64,000 bases of DNA from a virus, in the IMG/VR virus record IMGVR_UViG_3300028610_001353, positions 1 through 64,000 of that record, one strand, 5' to 3'. Position numbers and translations under genes: made by a program. How positions within the stretch are numbered: position 1 is the first letter of the stretch; every line of letters begins with the position of its first letter. The notes below the pieces were generated by a model, which saw only the letters and a program-made list of their open reading frames with translations, did not search any database and was not told where the DNA came from. Shown piece by piece: positions 33,895 through 58,138 of this stretch.

Positions 33895-34989
33895 TTATTC
33901 TTCTCCCCACAGGATCGCCGCCCAATACTCGGCGTCCCGTGTATCGTACCAAGTGGTGGTGGTTTCAGCCTTCGAGTGCCTCAGTTGCATCTGGGCACCC
34001 AGGATTCCGAGTCGTTCGATCATGCGAATACCGAACGCTCGGCGGATATCATGCGAGGTGGCGGTCTTGCCGGTCTCGTGGTTGGTCACGATGCCGGCGG
34101 TTCGCCCGAACTCGCTGATGCGATTGATAACCCGCTTCTCGGTCATTTGACCGGATTTGCCGGGTATGGGAAAGACGGGGCCGTGCCGTTCGCGGGTCGG
34201 CACCTCTTCACAGATGGCCCAGAACTCCTTGGTAACGGCCGCCCACTGCCGCTTCTTGTTCTTCTGTTTCGAGAAGCGAATCAGCGGCCATTTCTTCGCC
34301 GTAACCAAGGCGATCGGTGCGTCCAGGTCCCACGAGAGTTGCAGCAGTTCCCCGATCCGCAGGCCGCTCTCCCATTGGCCGTGCAGTAGACGTTTCCACG
34401 ACTCCGAGTCTTGCGGCCGGATTTTCGGCACAACTATCAACAGCTTCTCAAACTCTTCGAGGTTGATAGCTCGGGACCGGGCGCCCGGCTCCCACTCGAC
34501 CGGAACGTACGGGGCTCGTGCGATGAACCCTTCGCGTTCGGCCCAGTTCAGCGCGGCTCGAAGTCGGGCAGCGTAAGTCGCCACGGTGTTCTTTGCCGAA
34601 TCACGCTGGTAGAGAACGTCGAGAAATCGCCCTACCCATTGCCGATTGGCCGCCTGAATAGATTTGAGCGGAACCGACTCCTCGATCAGCCACTTGGTGG
34701 TCCCCCAGCTTTCGATCGACTTTGGAGACCGACGCGATAGACACCGACGTTCGTACTCGCCGCAGAACTCCAGCCACGAGGTGCCGTCGAGCGAAACGCC
34801 CGCGACAATCTGTTCGGCCAGTTCGGCGGCTTTCTGGTAGGCGTCCCGCTTGTTGAATTGGCCGAGCGTTCGTTGGCTCGGCTCGCCCGAAACTGGATCG
34901 ATCCACTTGGCGACGTACCCTGCCTTTTTTCGTCGACGCGGCAAGAAGACGCTCATGTGGACTTCTCGCATTGCGGATCGTCTCGACAT
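33895..34989 (-). CDS. int: tyrosine-recombinase integrase
   Basis: 364 residues from ATG 34989 (AAGGAGGAG upstream). SAM-like core-binding part about 70-155; catalytic residues R211 (ESGLRIGELL), K near 243-246, H313-x2-R316 (TSHDIRRAFG), H338 (LRHSKAETT) and Y348 (TWY). A complete phage integrase. The start overlaps the stop of the excisionase-like gene (TGATG). It would recombine the attP described at 33317-33579 with a host tRNA gene. Confidence 0.9.
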   Translation of the reverse strand: MSRRSAMREVHMSVFLPRRRKKAGYVAKWIDPVSGEPSQRTLGQFNKRDAYQKAAELAEQIVAGVSLDGTSWLEFCGEYERRCLSRRSPKSIESWGTTKWLIEESVPLKSIQAANRQWVGRFLDVLYQRDSAKNTVATYAARLRAALNWAEREGFIARAPYVPVEWEPGARSRAINLEEFEKLLIVVPKIRPQDSESWKRLLHGQWESGLRIGELLQLSWDLDAPIALVTAKKWPLIRFSKQKNKKRQWAAVTKEFWAICEEVPTRERHGPVFPIPGKSGQMTEKRVINRISEFGRTAGIVTNHETGKTATSHDIRRAFGIRMIERLGILGAQMQLRHSKAETTTTWYDTRDAEYWAAILWGEE

Positions 34990-35249
34990 CACTCCTCCTT
35001 CCATTGGGTGTGGTTTTTGGCAATGAAGTCCATGGCGTCCAGCACGCTCTGGACCTTCATTAGGTACCGGTGACCCAGCGGGACGTAGTCCACATCGCAT
35101 TTGCGGATGAGGCTTTCTACGACTGTTCGCCGGCTGGAATGGGTAAATGCGGCAACGTGCAGTTCCGTCGTAAAGTCTTGCGGGGAAAGAGAATAGGTGC
35201 CCTGTGAGCGGATAGACTCGATTTCCTGTTCGTATTGCTCGATAGCCAT
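34989..35249 (-). CDS. excisionase-like HTH protein
   Basis: 86 residues from ATG 35249. Residues 40-85 (FTHSSRRTVVESLIRKCDVDYVPLGHRYLMKVQSVLDAMD) match the winged HTH of excisionases/MerR-like DNA-binding domains (helix-turn-strand with a G-H-R-Y wing). Immediately upstream of the integrase and overlapping it by the TGATG start, the classical xis-int order. Specificity not visible. Confidence 0.65.
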   Translation of the reverse strand: MAIEQYEQEIESIRSQGTYSLSPQDFTTELHVAAFTHSSRRTVVESLIRKCDVDYVPLGHRYLMKVQSVLDAMDFIAKNHTQWKEE

Positions 35250-38963: not shown

Positions 38964-39494
38964 TTACCCAAGTCTGATCTTGGCATCACGATTGGACGCA
39001 CGATTCAGCCAGGGGAACGGCCGGTCTGGAGTCGGCGTTCCAAGGAATTCGCACAACGACTCCCACGCAAACGGCTGCGGAAATCCAAGCAACCTGTCGC
39101 CCGGAATCGCATCCCTCACGTTTTTGTGGTGACGTTCCCAAATTTCTCCGAGTCCACGGATGTCATCCGGATTGCAGCCGCCGTAGACCTTCTGTCGGTA
39201 ATATCGGTCATAGAAATATCCGGATATCCAGAATCCGGGGATTCGTTTCAGACTCCTGGCCCAGCCGTCGAACAATCGGGTATTCAAGATGAATCGCGAA
39301 CCGGGAAACATACGATCAAGCTCGCGCCAATGAGCCGTAATCATCACATCGCCGGCCGCGTTATGCTCCTCTAGCTGTTCCCAATTTCGCGGATTGTGAA
39401 TCGGGTTCCATCCCAGAATGCGAAGAGCTTCGCAGAGACTGGCCGAACCGCAACGAGGAAATCCGATAATCCAGACGTGTGGTTTAGCGTTCAT
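38964..39494 (-). CDS. sulfotransferase-family protein
   Basis: 176 residues. The P-loop-like PAPS site IIGFPRCGSASLCEALRILG near 9-28 and the C-terminal helix pattern (DRLLGFPQPFAWESLCEFLGTPTPDRPFPWLN) are characteristic of small bacterial/phage sulfotransferases (Sulfotransfer_4 or _3 type). It transfers sulfate from PAPS to a sugar or protein hydroxyl. Placement beside nucleotide-sugar enzymes suggests a sulfated glycan. Length is shorter than usual (about 250), so some elements are reduced. Confidence 0.7.
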   Translation of the reverse strand: MNAKPHVWIIGFPRCGSASLCEALRILGWNPIHNPRNWEQLEEHNAAGDVMITAHWRELDRMFPGSRFILNTRLFDGWARSLKRIPGFWISGYFYDRYYRQKVYGGCNPDDIRGLGEIWERHHKNVRDAIPGDRLLGFPQPFAWESLCEFLGTPTPDRPFPWLNRASNRDAKIRLG

Positions 39495-39706
39495 GGGCAT
39501 TCACATTCCCCATCATCGTGTTTTCCGGGCGGCACCGGTGCCGCGGCGGCCTCCCTGCCAAATGTCCGGAGCCGTTCCTGCCACGCCGGATTCGTATGAC
39601 ATTTCACACACAGCCCGTCGTGATCGGGGTGGCCAGGTACAAACACCCCTACGTCATCGGACATAAAAGGCGCATGACAACAATTGCAAGTGCATTTATT
39701 GGGCAT
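39491..39706 (-). CDS. small zinc-ribbon protein
   Basis: 71 residues from ATG 39706 (AAAGGAG upstream). CTCNCCHAPFMSDDVGVFVPG and CVKCHTNPAWQERLRTFGRE form a zinc ribbon-like pair; the end is rich in C and acidic residues. Overlaps the next gene's start by four bases. Unassigned; possibly a partner for the modification enzymes. Confidence 0.6.
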   Translation of the reverse strand: MPNKCTCNCCHAPFMSDDVGVFVPGHPDHDGLCVKCHTNPAWQERLRTFGREAAAAPVPPGKHDDGECECP

Positions 39707-39722
39707 CGCGATCTCCTTTGGT

Positions 39723-40391
39723 TTAGCGGGCATTTTGCTTCTCCGCGAACGTGTGGCGTGCCGTCTCAAAGTCAGCCGGCGTGTCGATGTCGAGCGAATC
39801 GCCGCGCGACACGTACCAAGAGGGGCGCGCGCCAACATGGTAGCCGGTGCGCTCGATGGCATCGCGGGTGAGAATCGAGAGCGTGAAAGGAAACGTGTAG
39901 AGCGTCGGCAGATCTTGGCTTGGCGTATGCCACTCTCCCCACTGCCAACCGATTGGGTGCAATTGCTCGTCGAGCAAATACGCCTTGAGCGGATAAACGA
40001 CACACAACGAATCGTACCCCACCGCTCTCGAAACGGGCCATTTGTCAATGACAGTTTTGTGTTCGGCGAAAAGTGGATCGCAGACTTGCGACCAGATTAG
40101 ATCATCATCGCCGGGCAGTTGGGCGCAAATCGTCCGTATCCACGTCGTAAGCGGCACGTCGTTCGGACATAGCGCGGGGTCACGCAGAAGCGGCGTCACA
40201 TTCCAGCATCGGGCGAGACGCTCCAGCCGTTCGGCGTCCTCGCAACTAACGTGAATGTCGGCCGCCGCGAGCCCCGCGCCAAGCAGCGCCTCGATGTTGA
40301 GGTCGACGAGTGACGATTGATTGTGAAACGGCCGCCAGTTCTTATCCGGCACCCGTGTGCTACTTGTTTTTGCGGGGATGATTGCTCGCAT
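39723..40391 (-). CDS. CMP-nonulosonate (acylneuraminate) cytidylyltransferase-like enzyme
   Basis: 222 residues. The start MRAIIPAKTSSTRVPDKNWRPF is the CTP-binding signature of the NeuA/CMP-KDO synthetase family (IPAR.GSKR.P.KN..P). Downstream: CNPDxxxT-type positions seen as LCPNDVPLTT, WSQVCDPL and SLDIDTPADFETARH (the D-I-D-T-P-x-D metal-binding end). It would activate a sialic-acid-like sugar as a CMP donor. The host must supply the sugar, since no synthase is visible here. Confidence 0.75.
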   Translation of the reverse strand: MRAIIPAKTSSTRVPDKNWRPFHNQSSLVDLNIEALLGAGLAAADIHVSCEDAERLERLARCWNVTPLLRDPALCPNDVPLTTWIRTICAQLPGDDDLIWSQVCDPLFAEHKTVIDKWPVSRAVGYDSLCVVYPLKAYLLDEQLHPIGWQWGEWHTPSQDLPTLYTFPFTLSILTRDAIERTGYHVGARPSWYVSRGDSLDIDTPADFETARHTFAEKQNAR

Positions 40392-40938
40392 GGTACCACT
40401 CGACTTTCGTTCGGTACAAGTTCCCGAGTAACGTGGCCAGCATTTTCTCAACTCGCGGATAGAGCGACATATCCGGAGGCAGCTTGGGCTTGCCCGCAAA
40501 GCCTGGGGCGTACCCCTTGCCTCCAACGCCGATTATCCGAATTCGTCTGTATCCGATCTTGGCCAACCAACTCATGGCCGCCGCGATCGTGTGGTGATGT
40601 GCAACGCCCCCGCTCATGAGTCGCTCGCGTAGCTTCCGGGGCCCGCACGAATTGCCGGCGTACCGCATTCGCTTATAAGTCGGAAAATCGGCGGGCAGTT
40701 CTTCCGGGCCGAGTAGTTTGGAGGGGGACACGAAGCAATCGACCCGCCCCCACAGTGGCCGCATCTTTTTCACAAACCCGGCGTGGCAGAAGAACGCAAA
40801 CCGGATGGGCTGATTTTTCCGCAACACAAGCCCGGCCTCGTTGATGATTGCAACATCCGAGCCGGGGCAGGCATCAATCCACTTCTGAGCGTGGACAGCC
40901 GTTGGGCCCTTGGCAACGATGGTTATGGTCCGGCTCAT
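40360..40938 (-). CDS. MptE/DUF115- or GT42-like sugar transferase candidate
   Basis: 192 residues from ATG 40938 (MSRTITIVAKGPTAVHAQKW). The GPT near the first strand, AIINEAG, RFAFFCHAGFVK and the later AAAMSWLAKIGYRRIRIIGVGGKGY follow the Rossmann-like pattern shared by MptE/DUF115 (Maf-type) and GT42 sialyltransferases (GxGPSL... N ... F). Positioned directly before the CMP-nonulosonate synthetase, with a 32-base overlap, it may be the transferase that uses its product. The family match is by motif only. Confidence 0.55.
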   Translation of the reverse strand: MSRTITIVAKGPTAVHAQKWIDACPGSDVAIINEAGLVLRKNQPIRFAFFCHAGFVKKMRPLWGRVDCFVSPSKLLGPEELPADFPTYKRMRYAGNSCGPRKLRERLMSGGVAHHHTIAAAMSWLAKIGYRRIRIIGVGGKGYAPGFAGKPKLPPDMSLYPRVEKMLATLLGNLYRTKVEWYHASNHPRKNK

Positions 40939-41054
40939 GGAACTACCCAGCACATGCTAATGAATGCTGCAATTACCGCAATGACCCCAAATATGGCAGA
41001 AAGAGTGGCAAAGAGCAGTGTCAATGTTAATAGTGTCTCGGTTTTGAAGCTCAT
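40935..41054 (-). CDS. 39-residue single-span membrane protein
   Basis: MSFKTETLLTLTLLFATLSA then IFGVIAVIAAFISMCWVVP: one long hydrophobic segment. ATGA overlap with the transferase gene, AAAGGAG upstream. It may anchor the modification enzymes at the membrane; inference from position. Confidence 0.6.
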   Translation of the reverse strand: MSFKTETLLTLTLLFATLSAIFGVIAVIAAFISMCWVVP

Positions 41055-41077
41055 ATAATTCTCCTTTGGTACATCAG

Positions 41078-42670
41078 TCATCGTTTCGCTTTTCCGAAAC
41101 AACGCTTAGCTGAAGGGCACACGACAAGGCGTCCGGTCAATTCGGCGATCCGCTCTGCTTGCTTGGGAGCACTTTCGATGTAGAACTTTGGCGCAATACG
41201 GTCGCGTTTGGAGAGAAATCGCTCAAGTGACTTTGCTTTCCATTCAGCTACATCGCTACGTCGACGATCTTGAATATCCTCCCAGGGGCCCATCACTAAT
41301 TTCTTGGCACTGATTCCCCAACGATCCATCCAGGCCATCGTCTGCGGTCGATACTTCTCCAGCCGGGCAGTCACGATTAGACTGATCGCCTTCTTTCGGA
41401 CCAGATACAACGGACGTGTTGCTTGCAAAAACTCCTCATATCTAGGTCCATCGTCATCATCCGCCGGAAGACAATCTTCGCATAGGATACCGTCGAAATC
41501 CAAAGCGAACGAATCGAGCAACACCGAATTGAAAAGATTCCATTCCAACAGATGAGGCCACGGCAGATCAACCGCCCACAAGTCCGGCTTGTTGACAGCG
41601 GCCGGATTGCAATACACGGATGCCCATATTTTCTCACCGGGCATGTCCTCTAACACTTGCTTCATGCGAAGCAGGCTGTTGCCCGTCATCGTTGTGTCGT
41701 CGATGACCAGTATTTTCCCTTGCTTCTTTGGTGCTCCTTGTTGCATCCTCCAACCATGTCCCGCCGGAACGAAATCGCCCAGACGGTTTCTGACGATTGT
41801 CATAGGAAGGTGCAGCATCATGGCAACCAACGATGCGGGAATCAATCCGGAACGAGCACTCCCGACAACCATCGTGACGTCGGGCGGCAATTTCGGAATT
41901 AGCGACAGTGTATCCGTTGTCAATTGGTCAGTGGTGATGAAGTCCGGCGTGCCGTTTGTCGGCTGAAAAGATCGAGCCCAATGCATTCCGGAAGGGAAGC
42001 CCTTGCGGTCGACAGTAACACTTCCACGCGCGCGCCTTTTACTTTTCTTCTTTCTGTGTCTCTTATTGTTAGGCGAATCTGCTTTGCGGATAGCCGCCTG
42101 GACTTTCCTTCGCACTCCTATCTTCAAGGCTATACCTTCAGTAAGAGAAGCACGGAGGAACTTACGAACCCATGGCCGATTTTCCTCCATCCACTCCTGA
42201 GCCCGTGGCAGAATTTCCTCGACAATCTCGTCCAGGTGCTCTTCGCAACCCTGTTTCCCCCAAGCATCCATCTTGGCGGCCAGTTCAAGACACTCCTCGC
42301 AATGAGGCGCACCCGCTCGCGAAAAGTCTTCCAGGAGTTTGCTTCCAGGCCCGTAGCCATTGAGCCGAGGTGTTCGCTGTGTTTGTTTTTTACCACCACC
42401 ACAGCCAGTGCAGGGTTTCTCGCCGTTACTAGAGCGCCGTTGCGGTGTTGCTCCCGACTTGTGAATCGACCGCGACTTAACGGGAATCTGCCGAGGAGGC
42501 ACCTCGTCTTCTTTCAGTGGTGGCAGTCTCCAACGTTGTCGGTACTCGTTTATCCGATCCAAAGTCAAATCTAGACGACGACCCTCGCAGATTTCACGAA
42601 GGGACGGGGTACCAGCAAATCGTTCACATCCTAACATCTCATCGTGACTTTCAGGGGATATGTTGCTCAT
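41078..42670 (-). CDS. phosphoribosyltransferase-HAD hydrolase fusion with zinc-type N-terminus
   Basis: 530 residues from ATG 42670, overlapping the upstream stop by four bases. Residues about 85-200: cysteine-rich helix part (PCTGCGGGKK, PHCEECLELAAKMDAWG.QGCEEHLDEIVEEI). Residues about 235-375: PRTase with the PRPP loop ILVIDDTTMTGNSL and VVGSARSG. Residues about 390-520: HAD-like hydrolase beginning FALDFDGILCED (DxDG) with VTARLEKYRP. Such a PRTase-HAD pair may make or dephosphorylate a ribosyl intermediate. Substrate unknown. It sits between the tail-tip Cys-rich gene and the sugar block. Confidence 0.7.
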   Translation of the reverse strand: MSNISPESHDEMLGCERFAGTPSLREICEGRRLDLTLDRINEYRQRWRLPPLKEDEVPPRQIPVKSRSIHKSGATPQRRSSNGEKPCTGCGGGKKQTQRTPRLNGYGPGSKLLEDFSRAGAPHCEECLELAAKMDAWGKQGCEEHLDEIVEEILPRAQEWMEENRPWVRKFLRASLTEGIALKIGVRRKVQAAIRKADSPNNKRHRKKKSKRRARGSVTVDRKGFPSGMHWARSFQPTNGTPDFITTDQLTTDTLSLIPKLPPDVTMVVGSARSGLIPASLVAMMLHLPMTIVRNRLGDFVPAGHGWRMQQGAPKKQGKILVIDDTTMTGNSLLRMKQVLEDMPGEKIWASVYCNPAAVNKPDLWAVDLPWPHLLEWNLFNSVLLDSFALDFDGILCEDCLPADDDDGPRYEEFLQATRPLYLVRKKAISLIVTARLEKYRPQTMAWMDRWGISAKKLVMGPWEDIQDRRRSDVAEWKAKSLERFLSKRDRIAPKFYIESAPKQAERIAELTGRLVVCPSAKRCFGKAKR

Positions 42671-44931
42671 TCTGTAATCACCACGCGATAGAGGACTGTC
42701 GCCCACTCCGGACACCCCAGGCATCTCCGTATATTTGCTCCCGACCCCTGGGGGAAGTGTGGCCAGTGTTCACTGTTAAACCACCCCTCCGGCGTTTCAG
42801 AAACCGGATCATCCTCGCTGGTGGACGCGTAGAACGGATCGCATTCCTCAACAATCATCGCGTCATCTGTCGTGGCATCCTGTCCTAGAAATTGGATAAC
42901 GATACGTCCCATTGTGTAGGTGATATGGTACACACCGCAATCAACCCCGCCAGGTAGATACCAGCCTTCATAGCCACACCCAACCTCAAAGCCGCCGCCG
43001 GGTCCAAGCGCCGTCACCTGCCGTTCGTAGTACAGCTCGACCGAAAACGAACAATACCCCGAGTTGTACGGATTGATATACGCATTACCCAGCTCTTCGG
43101 AGTAGGGCAATTCCTCGTAGAGAAGCTCGTAAAAAAATACTTCGATCGTGGCAGTGACAGATTTAGGATTTGACTTGCAACGATCGTCGCATGGAAGATT
43201 CGGACATGGTCCGACGTCACAATGCGGCACCAGCGAACCAATACTGATCGACACAGGCATCTCTTCACCGTAGACATCCCGCGTCCCCTGGAAATCAGCA
43301 TTCAAAATATACGAAGTTGATTGTATCTGTTTGCCTTCCCACGTAAACTCATCGCCGCAATCGTGAACAACAGGTGATTTAGGAGGCGTCCATTCAAAAG
43401 AAAGGACGGGGGTAATCACACAACCAAGTACCTCGTCTTTGGTGATCGCGATCTGAAGAAGATCGTATGCGTCGCCCCAACGGCGTTCTACTTCGTCCCA
43501 CGTCAGAATGAGATTAGGGTAAAAAGCCTCTCCGTCGAAGAACGCCACGCAAAGCTCCGCGGGAATACAACGACAGGTACCACAGAAATAGTCCCACCGT
43601 TGGCAAAACCCACATTTGAACTGGGCCGAAGATCCGCCGATGGCCAATGAAACGACAAGCGCGCAACTGCAACCACCGACAACCTCGATGAGTGCTGATC
43701 CGGTGTCGGACCTTACTTGACAGCGACGTTCGGGGTCCTCTTCCAGCAAAAGCGTTTCTTCTATGTCAGTACGTGGATCTATAATCCGCCAGCCGCGCAC
43801 GAGAACCAGCTCGCTACTGTAAGGATCTACGTAACTGTCGTCGAACCACCGCCATTCCATGCAGTTCCAGGGAATCTCTCGGTTGACCCGCCGTTCCTGC
43901 AACCGAGAGCAAACCTGCACGCACTGCCCGTAGGGATCGAGACTCACTTCTACAGTCTCCGCATAGGGACATTCCTCTTCGGTAGTACAATCAGGATCGT
44001 CGAAGTAGACACCATACGGTTCGCCGTCGGCATAATCAGCAGGCCCGTAGGCAACAGGCTCCGCGTACTCTTCACCTATCACCCAGCGTTCAAAATCCAT
44101 CGACCAGTACACCGATCGCGCAGTCTCACTATCGTCCCACTGGTATTGAGGCAAATCCTCCAACCAACGCTCTCCGTCAACCAGCACTGCCGGATGACCG
44201 CAAGGCGGATCGAGATCGTAGAACTCAGGATCACATTCAGGAATGTCTGCGGGCAGTCCATAAGCATCCTGGCACTCAGGATCATATTCGGGGAGAGGGC
44301 GATGACTCTCAAACGCAACAACGTCTTCCCGCTCAATGTACGGCAACTTCGCGATCGGCACGTTTTCCAATGAAAGCGTTCCCTCGCAGCCGTCCGGCCC
44401 GGTGCAAGCCACGGAAATCGCCGGAACTTCCAGGCATGTCACTGCGTCATGGTCTATCGGTACAATCGACGAATGGTCCACGTCGGGCAAAAAGGCATGG
44501 TCTTTTCGTTCCAGCGCAATCTTCCAACCGCACTCCTCCCCGTAGTCATCACCCACCTGCCCTAACTCGATATTGATCCCAATCGAGAACAGCGTGCCTC
44601 TATAAACAGAGTGGAAGTCATCGACAACATCGAGATCGCCTACACCATGCCACATAGGCACGCCGGCCGTGATGCAGCAATCGCCATCAAGATCGTCTGG
44701 CACAAATCGTGCGTAGATCAGTCGCGGAGCGCAGTTGCAACATACATTCCACTCATGCTCGTCACCCGGTTTCCAGGCTGCCATGAATGGCCGAACATTG
44801 TTGCAAGGCTCGCAACAGCAACAGTTGTAGTGCCCTCCAAGATTGCCGACTGAGGAGTCGTGAAACTCGCGACAGCGGAGGGAACCGCGACATTGATCCG
44901 GACCTTGCGATTCTTGCGGATCACTGGCCAT
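42667..44931 (-). CDS. 754-residue cysteine-rich virion protein
   Basis: 45 cysteines by count, in clusters: HYNCCCCEPCNN and VCCNCAP near the N-terminus, FKCGFCQRWDYFCGTCRCIP in the middle, PHCDVGPCPNLPCDDRC near 600. The rest is beta-rich and acidic. Location at the end of the tail-tip genes, after the tape measure, indicates a tail-tip or fibre-type protein. Many Cys pairs argue for metal clusters or an oxidised, extracellular structure. No named family. Overlaps the next gene upstream by 11 bases. Confidence 0.6.
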   Translation of the reverse strand: MASDPQESQGPDQCRGSLRCREFHDSSVGNLGGHYNCCCCEPCNNVRPFMAAWKPGDEHEWNVCCNCAPRLIYARFVPDDLDGDCCITAGVPMWHGVGDLDVVDDFHSVYRGTLFSIGINIELGQVGDDYGEECGWKIALERKDHAFLPDVDHSSIVPIDHDAVTCLEVPAISVACTGPDGCEGTLSLENVPIAKLPYIEREDVVAFESHRPLPEYDPECQDAYGLPADIPECDPEFYDLDPPCGHPAVLVDGERWLEDLPQYQWDDSETARSVYWSMDFERWVIGEEYAEPVAYGPADYADGEPYGVYFDDPDCTTEEECPYAETVEVSLDPYGQCVQVCSRLQERRVNREIPWNCMEWRWFDDSYVDPYSSELVLVRGWRIIDPRTDIEETLLLEEDPERRCQVRSDTGSALIEVVGGCSCALVVSLAIGGSSAQFKCGFCQRWDYFCGTCRCIPAELCVAFFDGEAFYPNLILTWDEVERRWGDAYDLLQIAITKDEVLGCVITPVLSFEWTPPKSPVVHDCGDEFTWEGKQIQSTSYILNADFQGTRDVYGEEMPVSISIGSLVPHCDVGPCPNLPCDDRCKSNPKSVTATIEVFFYELLYEELPYSEELGNAYINPYNSGYCSFSVELYYERQVTALGPGGGFEVGCGYEGWYLPGGVDCGVYHITYTMGRIVIQFLGQDATTDDAMIVEECDPFYASTSEDDPVSETPEGWFNSEHWPHFPQGSGANIRRCLGCPEWATVLYRVVITE

Positions 44932-46483: not shown

Positions 46484-48991
46484 CTATGCCACCTTCCACC
46501 CTGCCAGGAATTGCTCGTTTGCCGCCAGCAGCTTTGCGGTGTTCTCGGCAATGCGGTCTATCCCGGCGGCCATCTTTTTCTCGGGGCCGCCGGCCTGGTA
46601 TCCTGCGATTCGCGCGGCCGCGGCTGAATAGGTCGCGGTCAGGGCCACACCGCTGGGGGCGGCCGATACCACAGAGGCACCGCCGCCAACCGCAGGAGCC
46701 CCATCGGGTGTTGTTTCGGCCCCGGGTGTTGCTGCTATTTCGGCTTCAGTTTTGCGCTCGGCTGCCTGGCTACGTAATGCCGCCAACTCTTTCGCCGCGG
46801 CTTCAACCCCTTGGCCTGATTCGAGTGACTGAACAAACCCCTCCAATGCTCCCTCGAAGTCGGTCGCCAAACCGTCCGGCAGGTTTTGTATAAAGGCATC
46901 TGCCGCCCCGGCGGCGTTGGCAAGTCCCGCCTTGGTGTCGGCTTCCCATTGTTCTGTGATTCGCTTTATATCGCTTCGAGCATCGGCAAGCACGTCGACA
47001 GGCGCACTGTCGGCCGTACCGGAACCACCAGCCTTGATATCCGCTATTTGTGCGCGAATGAGATCTAACGCTTTGACGTTCGCCGCTTGTGATTGCGTGT
47101 CACCGCCCGCTGCGATTCTCTGTTCCAGAACTTGTTCCGTCTTCTCAAACACGGGCAAACGGGCCTTACGGCCTTCGCGTTCCGCCAACTCCGCTTTCGA
47201 CTGCTCTTCGCCCATGTCCACGCCGAGCACCTTGGACATGGCCTTGCCCATCACGCCCCCCTTGGCCGATGTTTCAAGCATCCAATTCGCCATACCCGCG
47301 ACTGCCTTTTGCCATGTACCCATGACTGCGCCGGCGACCGCGACGACGGTATTAAGAACATGCTTTCCCCATGCGTTCCATTGGCCTTGGAGCAGCGTGA
47401 TCGCTTCGCCGAACATCTTTACAAGGCCGTCCAGGGCCATGCCCGTGATGCCGGCAATCGCTTTGAAGGTTCCAGGAAACGCCGATACAATTTTGGACAG
47501 ACCTTGCAGGATAGCCAGCTTCAGCCCGGCCATGGCGATCTTGCCAGCCAGCTTCCACTCGCCCGCTAAGATTGCATCCTTGATTCCGCCGAAAGCTGCC
47601 TTGAGCGTCTCGATGATGGGCATCACGGTGGTGCGAAGCGATGTCCATGCCTGCTTGCCGCTCTCGCTGAACGCGAACCATGCCGCTGCCCCCCCTGCGA
47701 TTGCGGCAACCAGAATACCGAGCGGCGACGTAACTACCGAGATAATTGTCGCCAAGACACCGAGGCCGATCGAAGCGAGGTGCGCCGTGGCACCCAATCC
47801 CATCAGCGCAACACCAAGTCCGACAACTCCGGCCACGGTAGCTGCGGCAGCAATCACCATCCCCTTGTTTGCCTTGATCCACTTGATAGCTGATTGTGCG
47901 GATGTGGCCAGGAATTCAGACATCCGCTTGAGGTTCGGAGCCAACGCTTCGCCGATCGCGAGACTGACGTTTTTAGCCTGCTCTCTCATTCGATTCCAGT
48001 AGAACAACGGCCCTTTCATTTTCTCAAACGCCACTGCTACGTTGCCTGCCCTATTCGCCATTGCGTCAAGGTCATCACCGAACCCCTCCATCTTGGCGAT
48101 CGCGGGAAAGATGCCGCGAAGAGCGCGGATGTTCGGAAAGATCTTCGCGACATCCCCTGGGTCTAGTTTGCTCAGGCGTTCCAGCACGCCCGTCATGCCG
48201 ATAGCCTTTAGCGTGGTGGTGTCCAGTTCATCGCCGAATGTTTTTGCCCACAGTGCGGCGCCCGCGGCCTCCGGTTTCAGGAACGTCGCAGAGATCGCTT
48301 GCAACGCCGTCAGGGCGGTCTCCGTCCCGCCGGTAGCCCTGGTTAAGAGCGCCGTGGAGGCACCCATATCCCGGAACGACATACCGGCAGCCTCGGTGAC
48401 CGAAAGGATCTTGCCAAGGTTCTGCCCCAACTCCGGCAAGGTTGTGCGGCCTCGCTTGATGATGGCGAAAAGAAAGTCAGACGCATCGGCAGCATCAGTG
48501 AACGAGTCGCCGTAGGTTTCCATCAGGGTATTGAGCACGGACACCGAGTCGGCGACTTCGGCATTGCCCCCGACCGCGAGCTTAGCCGCCGCCGCCAGGC
48601 GTTGCATCGCTTGCTCTGGCGGGACAGTCGCCGATAAAATGTCGTACAGGCCGGCAGCAAGATCGCCTTTCGCCTTGCCAAACTCGACCGACATATCCTT
48701 GACGCCCTGCCGAAAATTCGGCATGAACTGAGACGGGCTGTCCAGCATCGTAGAGACGTTCCGCATCGCGTTGTCGAAGTCGGCAAACGACTTTGTGGCG
48801 AAAGCGAAGGGAGCAGCCATCGCCACCCCTGCAAGCGCAACCCGCCTCCCAGTCGCCATGGCGGATTGCCCAAACTGACGTAGCTTCGCCTGTGCAGCCT
48901 TCAAGGCTCGCACAAGCTGGCGGCTCATGTCGTTCTTCAGGTACAAGCGTACAAATGCACGGCCTGCTTCCACGTCCGCTCTGCTCGGCAT
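46484..48991 (-). CDS. tape measure protein
   Basis: 835 residues. Begins with a helical region and a TP901/Mu-like domain (ADFDNAMRNVSTMLDSPSQF, LAAAAKLAVGGNAEVADSVSVLNTL, GMSFRDMGASTALLTRATGGTETALTALQA). A long hydrophobic helical core lies about 375-470 (IAAAATVAGVVGLGVALMGLGATAHLASIGLGVLATIISVV), as expected for tape measures that reach the membrane at injection. The length predicts a tail on the order of 120-130 nm if the usual 0.15 nm per residue applies; inference. Confidence 0.85.
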   Translation of the reverse strand: MPSRADVEAGRAFVRLYLKNDMSRQLVRALKAAQAKLRQFGQSAMATGRRVALAGVAMAAPFAFATKSFADFDNAMRNVSTMLDSPSQFMPNFRQGVKDMSVEFGKAKGDLAAGLYDILSATVPPEQAMQRLAAAAKLAVGGNAEVADSVSVLNTLMETYGDSFTDAADASDFLFAIIKRGRTTLPELGQNLGKILSVTEAAGMSFRDMGASTALLTRATGGTETALTALQAISATFLKPEAAGAALWAKTFGDELDTTTLKAIGMTGVLERLSKLDPGDVAKIFPNIRALRGIFPAIAKMEGFGDDLDAMANRAGNVAVAFEKMKGPLFYWNRMREQAKNVSLAIGEALAPNLKRMSEFLATSAQSAIKWIKANKGMVIAAAATVAGVVGLGVALMGLGATAHLASIGLGVLATIISVVTSPLGILVAAIAGGAAAWFAFSESGKQAWTSLRTTVMPIIETLKAAFGGIKDAILAGEWKLAGKIAMAGLKLAILQGLSKIVSAFPGTFKAIAGITGMALDGLVKMFGEAITLLQGQWNAWGKHVLNTVVAVAGAVMGTWQKAVAGMANWMLETSAKGGVMGKAMSKVLGVDMGEEQSKAELAEREGRKARLPVFEKTEQVLEQRIAAGGDTQSQAANVKALDLIRAQIADIKAGGSGTADSAPVDVLADARSDIKRITEQWEADTKAGLANAAGAADAFIQNLPDGLATDFEGALEGFVQSLESGQGVEAAAKELAALRSQAAERKTEAEIAATPGAETTPDGAPAVGGGASVVSAAPSGVALTATYSAAAARIAGYQAGGPEKKMAAGIDRIAENTAKLLAANEQFLAGWKVA

Positions 48992-54159: not shown

Positions 54160-56397
54160 TCACGCGGCGCCCTTGCTCCGAACGCCGCCTCGGAAGTCTT
54201 GGGAGTTGACGCCGAAATCGAAGTAGCCACGCATCTGCACGCCAAGGGTGTCGAAGTCGGCATCGGCCTGCTCGATAATGGGGGTCTGTTGGCCATTAAG
54301 GAAACAGACCTCGACTGTCGACAATTCCTGCGGACTGGCCAACAGATTCCACGCAGTCGCGGAGTAGCCGGTGTAGCTGCTGTTACCCATGTACCGCGAC
54401 ACGACCGGCCGGAACTTGCCCGCGTGCGGGTTGTTGACCGGATACTTCGCGGTTGCTGATGGGTTTCTGATTTCGGTGGAGTTGAACAGCGAAGCCGATA
54501 AGGCGCTGAGTGAGGTCGGAACTAATAGAATCAGGGGCATGTGCCCAATCGGCTCGCCGTCCGCGTCTTTGAGGTCCATAAACAACTGCTCCGCTTCCGT
54601 GAGCGAGTCGATGGACAGTGCCGAATCCGCGCCGTCGAAGTAGTTCAATCTCCCCGCCGTGAACAACGTTCCCTGCGCGGCAAGGTAGGTTGTCCAAAAG
54701 ATGTGATTCAGAGTTCTGCCGCCACCATTGCCGAGCCGGCGTGGAACTGTGGTAATGGCCCCAAGGTCGTCGTTGATGATGTCGGTTCGCGTAACCGCCA
54801 ACCTCAGTGCATAGGTGTCGGCCTTGTTGGTGTACGCCTCATCCCCGAGCGTTCCGTGGGGGATCTCCCCGGACGGTGGCACTAGCTTGTATGTCGACTC
54901 GCCGGTGAGTCGATAACTGGTCGTCGTCTTGAAGTCCGACACGGGACGAATCGAGGCAACTTCCCGCCAAGCCGACTCGACGAAGCTAAAACCTTCCAGG
55001 AGGAACTTGTTGGCAACATTGCTGAGAATGTCCGTGATGGCGACCGTCGAGAAACCACCGGCCTGAATGGGAGCAAACGCATGTCGCATACAGCCCGTGC
55101 TATCCTGCTTGAACGAATAGCCAGACCAGCCGTTCGCCCGTGCCGAGGCGACAATCATTTCCTGCAAGCCAATTCCATGGGGGAACTGTTTATGGGCGGC
55201 GTCAAGCAGCTCGGGCGAACAATGATCCTCGGGCTTCGCGATCAAGCCAGTGGCTAAGACGGCGGCGGCGAGAATGTCATTGGTAATTCCGTCTTGGCTA
55301 CTACTATGGATACCCGGACCCTTGGGACGTTCGGCAACCATGAGGTCGGCCTTGAACTGTGCAGCGGCCACGATGTACTCCGCCCCCAACCGAGGCGCAG
55401 CCCATTTGTCTTTCAGCGCCGTTGCCAGCGCTTCGAGGCCGCCCTTGATGGCGGCGTCATAGAGTTTGTTGAAGTCGACCTCAGGAACCCTTGTGCGGTA
55501 ATCAGCGGCCGTTGCGTTGATCGCCGTCTTGTGCTGGGCGTGCGCCAGCTCAACTGCATCAAGGTCAAACTTGGGAGCCTCGACGAGCGGCGGCTTCTCG
55601 GCCGCTTCGATCTTCTTTGGATCACCAGACTCGGCAGCTTCCACTTTCGCGGCGGCGGCTTTCGCGTTGGCAGCTTCGGTTACCGCGTCGTACGCGGCCC
55701 GATAATGCTGGAGTTGATCTTCTCGCAGTTCGGCGACGTCAACGTCAAAAGCCTCAATCCACTTGTCAAATTCCATGTCGGTCTCCTTGTATTGCGCGGC
55801 GGACGCCGCTACTTTCGCCGTCGCTTTGCGATCAGCGCCAATTGCTACGAAACTGGTTTCCCCCAGCGTCGACTTACGCGCGACGTACAAGGGGCCGGTG
55901 AACGTCTTGCCGTTGACTTTCGTCGCCACACCTTCGCCGACGAATTCGAGTTTGTCGGGACGCGCGCCTACTGAGGCTTTCCATGGGAACCCATTCCCGG
56001 CGGCAGCTTGTACTTCAGCCGCGTCGGGACCCGCCCCGGAAATGACCCCAGCGAGCTTGAGAGAAGAGTCGCCGATCGTGACCTCATCCGCGTGGCCAAT
56101 CACGCGAGAGAGGTCGTGGTCGCGAAGAATGGGTATGGGTGCTTTTGCCCTGAGGCCAGAAAGGTCGATCACGACGGGCGGCCCGTAGCTGCTGACCTGC
56201 ATGGGGCCGCCGGTGTAGGCGGTCATCGAGAACCGCTTGGGCTTCGCCTCGCCGTCATCATCGGCGGCGGTGATCCACTCGACGCCAACGGCCTCCATTA
56301 GGATGGGGCCTTGCACGGCCGCCGCTCGAATCATCGCACGCTGAGATTGATGGTATCGGTGGCGTTCCTTGCGCTGTTGTTTTCGTTTCGTGGTCAT
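54160..56397 (-). CDS. fused prohead protease and major capsid protein
   Basis: 745 residues from ATG 56397; earlier in-frame starts cross the terminator. Residues about 20-215: protease with RDHDLSRVIGHADEV (catalytic His) and GNGFPWKASVGARPDKLEFVGEGV (catalytic Ser), GETSFVAIGADRKATA. Residues about 230-330: acidic, helical linker/scaffold (KAAAAKVEAAESGDPKKIEAAEK). Then an HK97-fold major capsid part to the end, with VEVCFLNGQQTPIIEQADADFDTLGVQMRGYFDFGVN. Fusion of protease, scaffold and capsid in one chain is known in some phages and implies self-processing. Confidence 0.75.
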   Translation of the reverse strand: MTTKRKQQRKERHRYHQSQRAMIRAAAVQGPILMEAVGVEWITAADDDGEAKPKRFSMTAYTGGPMQVSSYGPPVVIDLSGLRAKAPIPILRDHDLSRVIGHADEVTIGDSSLKLAGVISGAGPDAAEVQAAAGNGFPWKASVGARPDKLEFVGEGVATKVNGKTFTGPLYVARKSTLGETSFVAIGADRKATAKVAASAAQYKETDMEFDKWIEAFDVDVAELREDQLQHYRAAYDAVTEAANAKAAAAKVEAAESGDPKKIEAAEKPPLVEAPKFDLDAVELAHAQHKTAINATAADYRTRVPEVDFNKLYDAAIKGGLEALATALKDKWAAPRLGAEYIVAAAQFKADLMVAERPKGPGIHSSSQDGITNDILAAAVLATGLIAKPEDHCSPELLDAAHKQFPHGIGLQEMIVASARANGWSGYSFKQDSTGCMRHAFAPIQAGGFSTVAITDILSNVANKFLLEGFSFVESAWREVASIRPVSDFKTTTSYRLTGESTYKLVPPSGEIPHGTLGDEAYTNKADTYALRLAVTRTDIINDDLGAITTVPRRLGNGGGRTLNHIFWTTYLAAQGTLFTAGRLNYFDGADSALSIDSLTEAEQLFMDLKDADGEPIGHMPLILLVPTSLSALSASLFNSTEIRNPSATAKYPVNNPHAGKFRPVVSRYMGNSSYTGYSATAWNLLASPQELSTVEVCFLNGQQTPIIEQADADFDTLGVQMRGYFDFGVNSQDFRGGVRSKGAA

Positions 56398-56410
56398 CGT
56401 CAAGCACCAA

Positions 56411-56443
56411 TAAAAAAACGGGGGGCGATCACTCGCTCCCCCG
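56411..56443 (-). terminator. terminator between portal and capsid genes
   Basis: Minus strand CGGGGGAGCGA-GTGA-TCGCCCCCCG, one bulge, then TTTTTTT. Strong. It would reduce read-through from portal to capsid genes or be overridden by antitermination. Confidence 0.8.
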
Positions 56444-56569
56444 CATGGGCTCGACGTATGCGGCGTCTCGAAGGGCTGGCCAGCCCTGCCGATTGCCTGG
56501 ACCGCGATTGATCGCAGCCCCCTAGTTTTTAGTTGTTTGAAAGCACCTCTCGCAAAATGGTGTGTTTGT

Positions 56570-58138
56570 TTATGTGCGGGCCAGCCTGTTCCCGTTGCGG
56601 CCGGCAGTCGGCAGCCGGTTCCTGCCTTGTGTTGGAGTCGACGTCGACGACGACGATGACGACGACGGAGGCAGTGGAGGCGGTTCGACAGTCGCAGATG
56701 CGCCGCCACCAAAGTGAGCCTTGAAGAGCGCGACCCTCATCTCGTCAACCGTGATGCCGTAGTCCTCGGCCATGCGGGGCAATTCTTCCTCGAGGTCCAA
56801 GCCACTCTGGGCGTAGACTCGACGGAGAACCGCAACGCCGGCCGATAGATTGATCTTGTTGGCGTTGGCGTGCTTGACCTCGTCGATGACCGGCTTCTCG
56901 GGCCAGTCCCAGCCGTGATTCGGTGGTGGATCAGCCGGCACGCCCCAACCAAACCGTTCGACAGCTTCGGCGAAGAACACCTCGAAAAGCGGATCAAGCC
57001 CGTCCTCGTCAATGTCATGTTGCTCAACATCGACCGAAACGAAATAGGTCAGATGATCGACTCTGCCACCGGAGAACGTGGTTCCCTGAGAGTCAGCCCT
57101 TGCGATGTTGTTCGGCATGTTGAGCGGCCGCGCCTGCTCGCCTGATTGCTCGCGAGTGAACTCTGTGTAGGTTGCTGATGGCTGCTCTGGCCTCGGCTGG
57201 AATGCGTCGTAGCCAGCCGGTAAGGCCGTCATCATCCCCTTCTCGATCGGAAGCGTGGATAGGGGCCGAACGATGTCGGGTCCATCGTCGGGCAGCAACT
57301 CCGTTTTGAGCATCACCGAAAAGTTTGCGATATTCTCGGCCCCCGCAAGAACCGCCTCACGGAACCGCCGGCCCTGCGCATAGCAATTCAGCGACGGGGC
57401 GACCTCCGTGACGCCGCGGTGTTGACCGGCTCGGTCTTCGCGAAAAAGGTGAAGCATGAATCGGGCGGGCACCCGTTCCACTTTTTGACCCAGCCCGCTC
57501 CACTGACTGCCCGGATGCTGCTTGAGCACGTCGTAGAAAAGCGGGTTGCCATATTCGTCAAACTCGATGCCGTCAATCTTGTTCGACTCGTTGGCCCCAA
57601 GGTACGGCGTCGTGACTTGTTCGCACTCGACCATTCGCAAACCGAGCTTGACGCGGTGGCGCATCTTCGGATTCTGCGTAATGATGATGAACGCTTCGCC
57701 GTCTGAAACCTTTGCCTTGATGACCGTACGAAGCTTCTTGGCCAACTTCACTTCCTTGGCCCACTTCTTCCACTCGGCCTCAACCATCGAGTTGAAACGT
57801 GGGCTGCCGGTTTGCATCCGCAGCTTGGGACCTCGGCCAACCACATAATTTGCCTGGGTGAGTTGGATGCCCTTGCCTAGGCCGTTGTTGGAAAGTTCGT
57901 ATCGGGCTCGTTGGGAGATCCGTTGGCGGACGGTCTTGCTGTTGGCGGAGTCTGCGTCAAGAGCATCGGCGGCAAGCCAGTGTTGCTTGTTCATGCCGCC
58001 GGTAGACGCGGCGTCGTAGCTGCCACGGACCGGTCGAGGCGTGTCCATGTCGACCGTCACCGGCTGGCGTGAACTGCGAGTACTGACGGCCTCCGAAACG
58101 CCGGTCGACGAGACAACGATCGTGGTACAAAGATCCAT
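56570..58138 (-). CDS. lambda-family portal protein
   Basis: 522 residues. QGRRFREAVLAGAENIANFSVMLKTELLPDDGP and RMVECEQVTTPYLGANESNKIDGIEFDEYGNPLFYDVLKQHP ...RVPARFMLHLFREDRAGQHRGVTEVAPSLN... follow lambda gpB-type portals. It overlaps the gpW-like gene's stop via TGATG. It forms the dodecameric channel at the capsid vertex. The C-terminus is serine- and proline-rich. Confidence 0.8.
   Translation of the reverse strand: MDLCTTIVVSSTGVSEAVSTRSSRQPVTVDMDTPRPVRGSYDAASTGGMNKQHWLAADALDADSANSKTVRQRISQRARYELSNNGLGKGIQLTQANYVVGRGPKLRMQTGSPRFNSMVEAEWKKWAKEVKLAKKLRTVIKAKVSDGEAFIIITQNPKMRHRVKLGLRMVECEQVTTPYLGANESNKIDGIEFDEYGNPLFYDVLKQHPGSQWSGLGQKVERVPARFMLHLFREDRAGQHRGVTEVAPSLNCYAQGRRFREAVLAGAENIANFSVMLKTELLPDDGPDIVRPLSTLPIEKGMMTALPAGYDAFQPRPEQPSATYTEFTREQSGEQARPLNMPNNIARADSQGTTFSGGRVDHLTYFVSVDVEQHDIDEDGLDPLFEVFFAEAVERFGWGVPADPPPNHGWDWPEKPVIDEVKHANANKINLSAGVAVLRRVYAQSGLDLEEELPRMAEDYGITVDEMRVALFKAHFGGGASATVEPPPLPPSSSSSSSTSTPTQGRNRLPTAGRNGNRLART

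What the first reader, a model, noticed from the sequence alone, without database searches (positions are those of the whole stretch)
38964..42670. Possible nonulosonate (sialic-acid-like) and sulfate modification module in a phage
In order along the minus strand: PRTase-HAD fusion, a small membrane peptide, an MptE/GT42-like candidate transferase, a CMP-nonulosonate synthetase-like enzyme, a zinc protein and a sulfotransferase. Motifs for the synthetase and sulfotransferase are clear in the sequence; the transferase is by pattern. Known: CMP-sugar synthetase and GT42/Maf-type proteins act as donor maker and transferase for sialic-type sugars. Inferred: the phage activates and adds such a sugar, perhaps with sulfate, to its own virion or to the host surface.
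Basis: partly seen in the sequence, partly recalled or inferred. Interest (0 to 1): 0.78.

Follow-up and report, generated by a model that had tools for sequence, protein, structure and literature searches.

The report
Phage tail-operon sugar-and-sulfate modification cassette
Right behind its tail genes this phage carries a tightly packed set of genes that look able to activate an acidic sugar of the sialic-acid/Kdo kind, attach it to something, and add sulfate; related phages carry different enzymes of the same classes in the same place, so the set looks like a real, swappable surface-decoration module rather than a chance string of genes.

Summary
The gene string is real and conserved in order in two other IMG/VR phages at 57-80% protein identity. 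It is joined to the last tail gene by ATGA stop/start overlaps.

The cytidylyltransferase is solid: it is 32% identical over 97% of its length to an E. coli cytidylyltransferase encoded near a NeuB fusion. It keeps the CTP- and Mg-binding residues of NmCSS (one Arg to Lys) but not the residues that bind sialic acid, so the sugar is unproven. The sulfotransferase is solid (Pfam Sulfotransfer_4, 5e-29).

The proposed transferase matches no family by sequence. Its predicted fold (mean pLDDT 71) falls in the MptE/TPK/GT42/GT29 group, and CstII is the only PDB Foldseek hit below 1e-3.

A distinct GT42/DUF115-like family occurs in one relative and 15 other phage records; 11 of those encode a CTP_transf_3 protein (Kdo-type in the four tested) 3-8 kb downstream on the same strand, some with sulfotransferases.

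Best reading: a tail-coupled CMP-ulosonate transfer and sulfation cassette, most likely acting on the virion, using a host-made sugar. New variant of known phage glycan modification.

The parts
42667..44931 (-). Cys-rich 754-aa protein, last of the tail genes; its stop overlaps the module's first ATG
   Evidence: 45 Cys; lies downstream of the tape measure 46484-48991; homologue in phage G013 also precedes a glycan island (BLASTP 3e-25)
41078..42670 (-). PRTase-HAD protein (530 aa): phage-specific N-terminal domain, phosphoribosyltransferase (PF00156) and HAD-like C-terminus
   Evidence: PF00156 8e-5, just below the Pfam cut-off; HAD/PNK-type phrog_415 6e-4; 57-64% identity to two relatives; N-terminal domain shared with a G013 protein that has no PRTase-HAD part
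40935..41081 (-). Small membrane peptide, ATGA overlaps at both ends
   Evidence: short hydrophobic peptides of different sequence occupy the same slot in both relatives
40360..40938 (-). Candidate CMP-sugar transferase of the MptE/GT42/GT29 fold group (192 aa)
   Evidence: 78-80% identity to two relatives; AF2 mean pLDDT 70.8, pTM 0.74; Foldseek CstII E=6.4e-4; VIA Z 11.5 MptE, 11.8 SteA, 9.3 Cst-I; no sequence family
39723..40391 (-). Cytidylyltransferase of the CTP_transf_3 / CMP-ulosonate synthetase family (222 aa)
   Evidence: Profile match to NmCSS (1eyr) over residues 3-219, E=1.1e-5; TIGR03584 PseF 5e-9, below its cut-off; 31.8% identity over 97% to an E. coli homologue, 2e-22; catalytic residues mapped
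39491..39706 (-). Small Cys-rich (putative zinc-binding) protein, not conserved in all relatives
   Evidence: absent from IMGVR_UViG_3300033144_007188
38964..39500 (-). PAPS-type sulfotransferase (178 aa)
   Evidence: PF17784 Sulfotransfer_4 5.3e-29, 102 bits against a cut-off of 22.8; 5'-PSB-like PRCG and 3'-PB-like R75/S83 invariant in three phages

Best explanation
A glycan-modification cassette translationally coupled to the phage tail operon. Step 1 (activity inferred from homology and conserved residues): the 39723-40391 enzyme couples CTP to a 2-keto-3-deoxy sugar acid (a nonulosonate, Kdo or similar) made by the host, because no NeuB is found in the phage record. Step 2 (inferred from fold and gene context): the 40360-40938 protein, perhaps held at the membrane by the coupled hydrophobic peptide, transfers that sugar from CMP to an acceptor. 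Step 3 (family solid, acceptor inferred): the 38964-39500 sulfotransferase adds sulfate from host PAPS to the glycan or to the same protein. The acceptor is most likely a tail-tip protein made from the same transcript, giving a charged, sugar-coated virion; host-surface change is the main alternative. The PRTase-HAD protein is encoded with the set but its role is unknown.
For: Conserved gene order with ATGA/overlap coupling in three phages. Full-length cytidylyltransferase homology, with CTP- and metal-binding residues kept (roles from PMC2901514). The E. coli homologue's locus also carries an Inositol_P-family gene and a 515-aa protein whose C-terminus is NeuB (1.3e-43) and whose N-terminus has a GxGPS-type motif resembling the transferase candidate. 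Homologues on plasmids lie beside a GT29 gene (Paracoccus) and MptE-like genes (Thalassovita). Fold of the transferase candidate. A separate GT42/DUF115-like family (phrog_4603 alpha-2,3-sialyltransferase 5e-6) occurs in one close relative and in 15 other phage records; 11 of the 15 carry CTP_transf_3, which from the coordinates lies downstream on the same strand 3-8 kb away. Sulfotransferases occur in some of these islands: Sulfotransfer_4 in two, Sulfotransfer_2 in the same two. G013 shares the Cys-rich tail protein and the N-terminal domain of the PRTase-HAD protein.
Against: The transferase candidate has no significant sequence similarity to any glycosyltransferase, and its best fold neighbours include kinases and SteA. 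One AF2 model of five is fair, the others are poor. The catalytic His of GT42 cannot be placed, because residues 139-159 have low confidence. NmCSS residues R165, R173, N175, Y179, F192 and F193 are not kept. The AF2 model of the cytidylyltransferase failed (pLDDT 34). No acceptor site is identified: the window's tail proteins lack the Ser-rich stretches seen in some relatives. An integrase keeps lysogenic conversion open.
Confidence: 0.55

Rival explanations
1. Lysogenic conversion: the same enzymes act on the host's capsule, LPS or S-layer glycan, changing phage receptors of the lysogen, as prophage EpaA/EpaB change pseudaminic acid in Acinetobacter capsule.
For: Integrase close downstream of the module (33895-35100). 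Prophage EpaA, which has a CTP_transf_3 domain, together with EpaB converts capsule Pse to 8-epi-Pse (PMC12053666). No NeuB in the phage record, so the sugar must come from a host pathway.
Against: The module is coupled by ATGA overlap to the last tail gene, so it should be made late with virion proteins. The minus-strand promoter-like matches in the region are no more than chance expects and none lies just upstream of the module. Related islands also follow tail genes.
Confidence: 0.27
2. The 40360-40938 protein is not a sugar transferase but a TPK/MptE-like pyrophosphokinase or a non-catalytic SteA-like protein, and the genes are an unrelated set of morons.
For: Top VIA neighbours by Z include SteA 11.8, MptE 11.5 and TPK 10.1, above Cst-I at 9.3.
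Against: The only PDB Foldseek match with E below 1e-3 is CstII bound to CMP. Pfam MptE-like is not matched. No TDxDG or GDxDS-type acidic motif is visible in the aligned sequences (that these kinases carry such a motif is general knowledge, not tested). It sits beside a CMP-sugar synthetase, as fold relatives do elsewhere.
Confidence: 0.13
3. The cytidylyltransferase makes a CMP-activated donor other than a nonulosonate, for example CMP-Kdo, so the module is a Kdo-type transfer system.
For: The CTP_transf_3 genes of four related phage islands match Kdo cytidylyltransferase models (up to 4e-59). NmCSS residues for the sialic-acid carboxylate and N-acetyl group are not kept. Maf transferases can use CMP-Kdo (PMC11339370, abstract).
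Against: The window enzyme scores better with PseF (5e-9) than with KdsB models (0.0075), and its nearest homologue lies near a NeuB fusion.
Confidence: 0.3

Closest known systems
Prophage EpaA/EpaB of Acinetobacter baumannii (PMC12053666)
   Same: Phage-borne enzymes including a CTP_transf_3 domain, acting on a host-made nonulosonate
   Different: EpaA is fused to an aldo-keto reductase and converts Pse to its 8-epimer in the capsule; no transferase or sulfotransferase in the pair, and not described as tail-coupled
CMP-N-acetylneuraminate synthetase (NmCSS, 1eyr) and PseF
   Same: Full-length profile alignment; CTP and Mg residues kept
   Different: Sialic-acid-binding residues R165, R173, N175, Y179, F192, F193 not kept; below the PseF equivalog cut-off
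GT42 sialyltransferases Cst-I/CstII and the DUF115/MptE-like phage proteins (phrog_4603)
   Same: Overall fold; genomic pairing with CMP-sugar synthetases
   Different: No significant sequence match; shorter; catalytic His not placed
E. coli KE47 locus with cytidylyltransferase and a GT42-like/NeuB fusion (L012)
   Same: Nearest homologue of the cytidylyltransferase (32%); a protein with a similar GxGPS-type N-terminal motif lies nearby
   Different: Chromosomal glycan locus that also makes the sugar (NeuB); no sulfotransferase seen in the stretch read
Maf/DUF115 flagellin O-glycosyltransferases (PMC4065374, PMC11339370)
   Same: Transfer of CMP-ulosonates directly to protein Ser/Thr; the model for a virion-acting transferase
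   Different: Maf proteins modify flagellin; no Maf-length protein here, only the fold group

Membership tests
CTP_transf_3 (PF02348) cytidylyltransferases | Match to the family profile | tested here: met
   Window protein 21.5 bits, just under the 22.6 cut-off; relative G001 27.7 bits, over it; E. coli homologue at 2e-22 is a clear member, 57.6 bits
CTP_transf_3 (PF02348) cytidylyltransferases | Nucleotide- and Mg-binding residues (NmCSS R12, K21, Q104, D209, D211) | tested here: met
   K, K, Q, D, D in all three phages, with R12 replaced by Lys (roles from PMC2901514)
CMP-nonulosonate synthetase (NeuA/PseF) | Equivalog score (TIGR03584 cut-off 205.7) | tested here: not met
   36.1 bits
CMP-nonulosonate synthetase (NeuA/PseF) | Residues binding the sialic-acid carboxylate and N-acetyl group (R165, Y179, F192, F193) | tested here: not met
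   S/G, S, Y, H at these columns; the alignment is less sure in this part
GT42 sialyltransferase | Fold | tested here: met
   CstII Foldseek 6.4e-4, Cst-I Z 9.3 over 165 residues, on a model of pLDDT 71; fold shared with MptE and TPK
GT42 sialyltransferase | Sequence profile match | tested here: not met
   No Pfam or PHROG family at E<=1 for the window protein or its relatives
GT42 sialyltransferase | Catalytic His (CstII H188) | tested here: inconclusive
   Model residues 139-159 below pLDDT 50; invariant His residues exist (H114-116, H187) but cannot be superposed with confidence
Sulfotransfer_4 (PF17784) | Profile above cut-off | tested here: met
   102 bits against 22.8
Sulfotransfer_4 (PF17784) | PAPS-binding 5'-PSB and 3'-PB motifs | tested here: met
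   PRCG and R75...S83 invariant in three phages, read by eye
Complete nonulosonate pathway | NeuB-type synthase in the same genome | tested here: not met
   No PF03102 in the phage record or in the 17 related records searched
Virion glycosylation system | Glycan on purified particles | not testable with these tools
   Needs particles and mass spectrometry

The most novel reading that the evidence does not exclude
A widespread but undescribed slot behind the tail-tip genes of uncultured phages holds exchangeable sets of a CMP-ulosonate synthetase, a sialyltransferase-fold transferase, a sulfotransferase and methyltransferases that decorate the virion tail with charged sugars; the window carries a small version whose transferase belongs to a sequence family with no described members.
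Probability: 0.35. Interest if true: 0.78.

Novelty: new variant of a known kind. Interest (0 to 1): 0.6.

Why it matters
Phage-borne enzymes that alter host nonulosonates are known (EpaA/EpaB), but a phage set with its own CMP-sugar synthetase, a sialyltransferase-fold protein and a sulfotransferase coupled to the tail operon is not described in the papers found here. If it decorates the virion, some uncultured phages would carry a sialic-acid- or Kdo-like, possibly sulfated coat, with consequences for adsorption and particle stability. The recurrence in at least 11 other phage records makes the idea testable with a few recombinant enzymes.

Tried and rejected
AF2 model of the cytidylyltransferase: pLDDT 34, discarded. 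Sequence profiles of the transferase candidate against PDB, against the GT42/DUF115-like phage family (hhalign probability 6.9) and against the E. coli NeuB-fusion N-domain with shuffles: nothing significant, so the link is by fold and context only. Genome-contig scans with the transferase candidate and with the PRTase-HAD alignment found no relatives, so the host could not be named. No relatives in cultured phages for the transferase candidate, cytidylyltransferase, sulfotransferase, the GT42/DUF115-like protein or the E. coli cytidylyltransferase. A broad cytidylyltransferase alignment was too diverse for pattern search. I considered that the PRTase-HAD protein might make or dephosphorylate the sugar; its N-terminal domain occurs in another phage without the PRTase-HAD part, so I do not assign it a step. 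Serine-rich stretches as acceptor sites: present in tail proteins of several relatives but not in the window.
Full report
What is there. The window is part of a 69.5-kb virus record of a siphophage type with terminase, portal, a fused protease-capsid protein, a tape-measure protein, a Cys-rich tail protein and an integrase. The first junctions are ATGA overlaps (42670, 41081, 40938), the transferase candidate and cytidylyltransferase overlap by 32 bp, and the sulfotransferase start overlaps the zinc gene's stop. The arrangement is kept in two other IMG/VR phages: PRTase-HAD 57-64% identity, transferase candidate 78-80%, cytidylyltransferase 75-77%, sulfotransferase 58-69%, with most of the same overlaps (in IMGVR_UViG_3300037247_001044 the membrane peptide ends shortly before the transferase start instead of overlapping it). 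The zinc protein is missing from one. This conservation rules out a chance string of frames.

The cytidylyltransferase. Pfam CTP_transf_3 is matched at 2.3e-4 for the window protein, over the cut-off for a relative, and PseF at 5e-9 over the N-terminal third. A profile of the three phage proteins aligns over its whole length with N. meningitidis CMP-Neu5Ac synthetase, E=1.1e-5. Mapping residues whose roles are given in PMC2901514: K21, Q104, K142, D209 and D211 are kept in all three phages, and R12 is Lys; R165, R173, N175, Y179, F192 and F193 are not kept. So nucleotide and metal chemistry is expected, while the sugar is open. The closest non-phage protein found is in E. coli KE47 (31.8% identity, 97% coverage, 2e-22), in 11 of 5,426 E. 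coli genomes. Its neighbours include an Inositol_P-family protein and a 515-aa protein whose C-terminal half is NeuB (1.3e-43) and whose N-terminal half has a GKGPS motif and layout like the transferase candidate. An Enterobacter plasmid has the same pair. More distant homologues sit beside a GT29 gene in Paracoccus and MptE-like genes in Thalassovita.

The transferase candidate. It matches no family by sequence. The best AF2 model has pLDDT 70.8 and pTM 0.74; the other four are poor. Foldseek finds one PDB chain below 1e-3, the sialyltransferase CstII with CMP. VIA-align gives SteA 11.8, MptE 11.5, TPK 10.1, Cst-I 9.3 and mammalian GT29 enzymes 8.0 and below. Among viral predicted structures the best-named hits are DUF115 and MptE-like phage proteins. 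Local similarity to the E. coli fusion N-domain is not significant against shuffles (p 0.03-0.25 by protein, profile score within the shuffles). The assignment as a CMP-sugar transferase is therefore inferred from fold plus neighbours.

The sulfotransferase is a clear Sulfotransfer_4 member (102 bits) with PAPS motifs kept in three phages. Homologues on plasmids are annotated as sulfotransferase family proteins.

Related islands. The relative G002 has one more gene next to the sulfotransferase, a 344-aa protein matching phrog_4603 alpha-2,3-sialyltransferase at 5e-6. An alignment of its family finds 16 IMG/VR records. Of the 15 besides G002, 11 have a CTP_transf_3 gene; comparing coordinates, it always lies downstream on the same strand within about 3-8 kb. 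Some of these records are near copies of each other, so the independent number is smaller, about nine. Four tested match Kdo cytidylyltransferase models. Ten of the records carry an FkbM methyltransferase, two carry Sulfotransfer_4 and the same two Sulfotransfer_2. In G013 the island follows a homologue of the window's Cys-rich tail protein (3e-25) and a protein that shares the N-terminal domain of the PRTase-HAD protein (9e-19, hhalign probability 98.8). So the same place behind the same tail gene is filled with different genes of the same enzyme classes. NeuB is absent from all these records, so the sugar acid must come from the host.

Mechanism. Shown: gene order, overlaps, family of the cytidylyltransferase and sulfotransferase, fold group of the transferase candidate. 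Inferred: CTP coupling to a host ulosonate, transfer by the sialyltransferase-fold protein, sulfation, and action on the virion. Coupling to the last tail gene argues for late expression and virion modification; the nearby integrase and the EpaA/EpaB precedent (PMC12053666) keep lysogenic conversion open.

Novelty. Phage-borne nonulosonate-modifying enzymes and MptE-like phage proteins are known, so I rate this a new variant of a known kind. The tail-coupled combination with a sulfotransferase, and its recurrence, are what is new here as far as the searched papers show; absence from that library is weak evidence.

Noticed in passing
L018:1842-3170, L021:3248-4981, L022:137-1069, L027:1545-3065, L054:356-1066: Tail-region proteins upstream of the glycan islands in several related phages carry long Ser/Thr-rich stretches (63-78% S/T over 60 residues), possible O-glycan acceptor sites; the window's tail proteins do not.
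   Followed up: partly
L012:9153-10700: E. coli KE47 encodes a 515-aa fusion of a GT42/MptE-like looking N-terminal domain with NeuB, beside a cytidylyltransferase present in 11 of 5,426 complete E. coli genomes.
   Followed up: partly
L033, L034, L035, L036: Kdo-type cytidylyltransferase genes (PRK05450 up to 4e-59) in uncultured phages, within glycan islands behind tail genes.
   Followed up: partly
window 54160-56712: 850-aa frame that matches head maturation protease and major head protein families together (phrog_4523 1e-62), a protease-capsid fusion.
   Followed up: no
window 41078-42670 and L053:3063-4604: A phage-specific N-terminal domain is joined to PRTase-HAD in the window and to an unrelated C-terminal part in G013: a domain swap at the tail/island junction.
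   Followed up: partly
NZ_CP141089.1: PLSDB lists this 4.9-Mb E. coli KE47 record as a plasmid; the E. coli genome collection counts the match as chromosomal.
   Followed up: no
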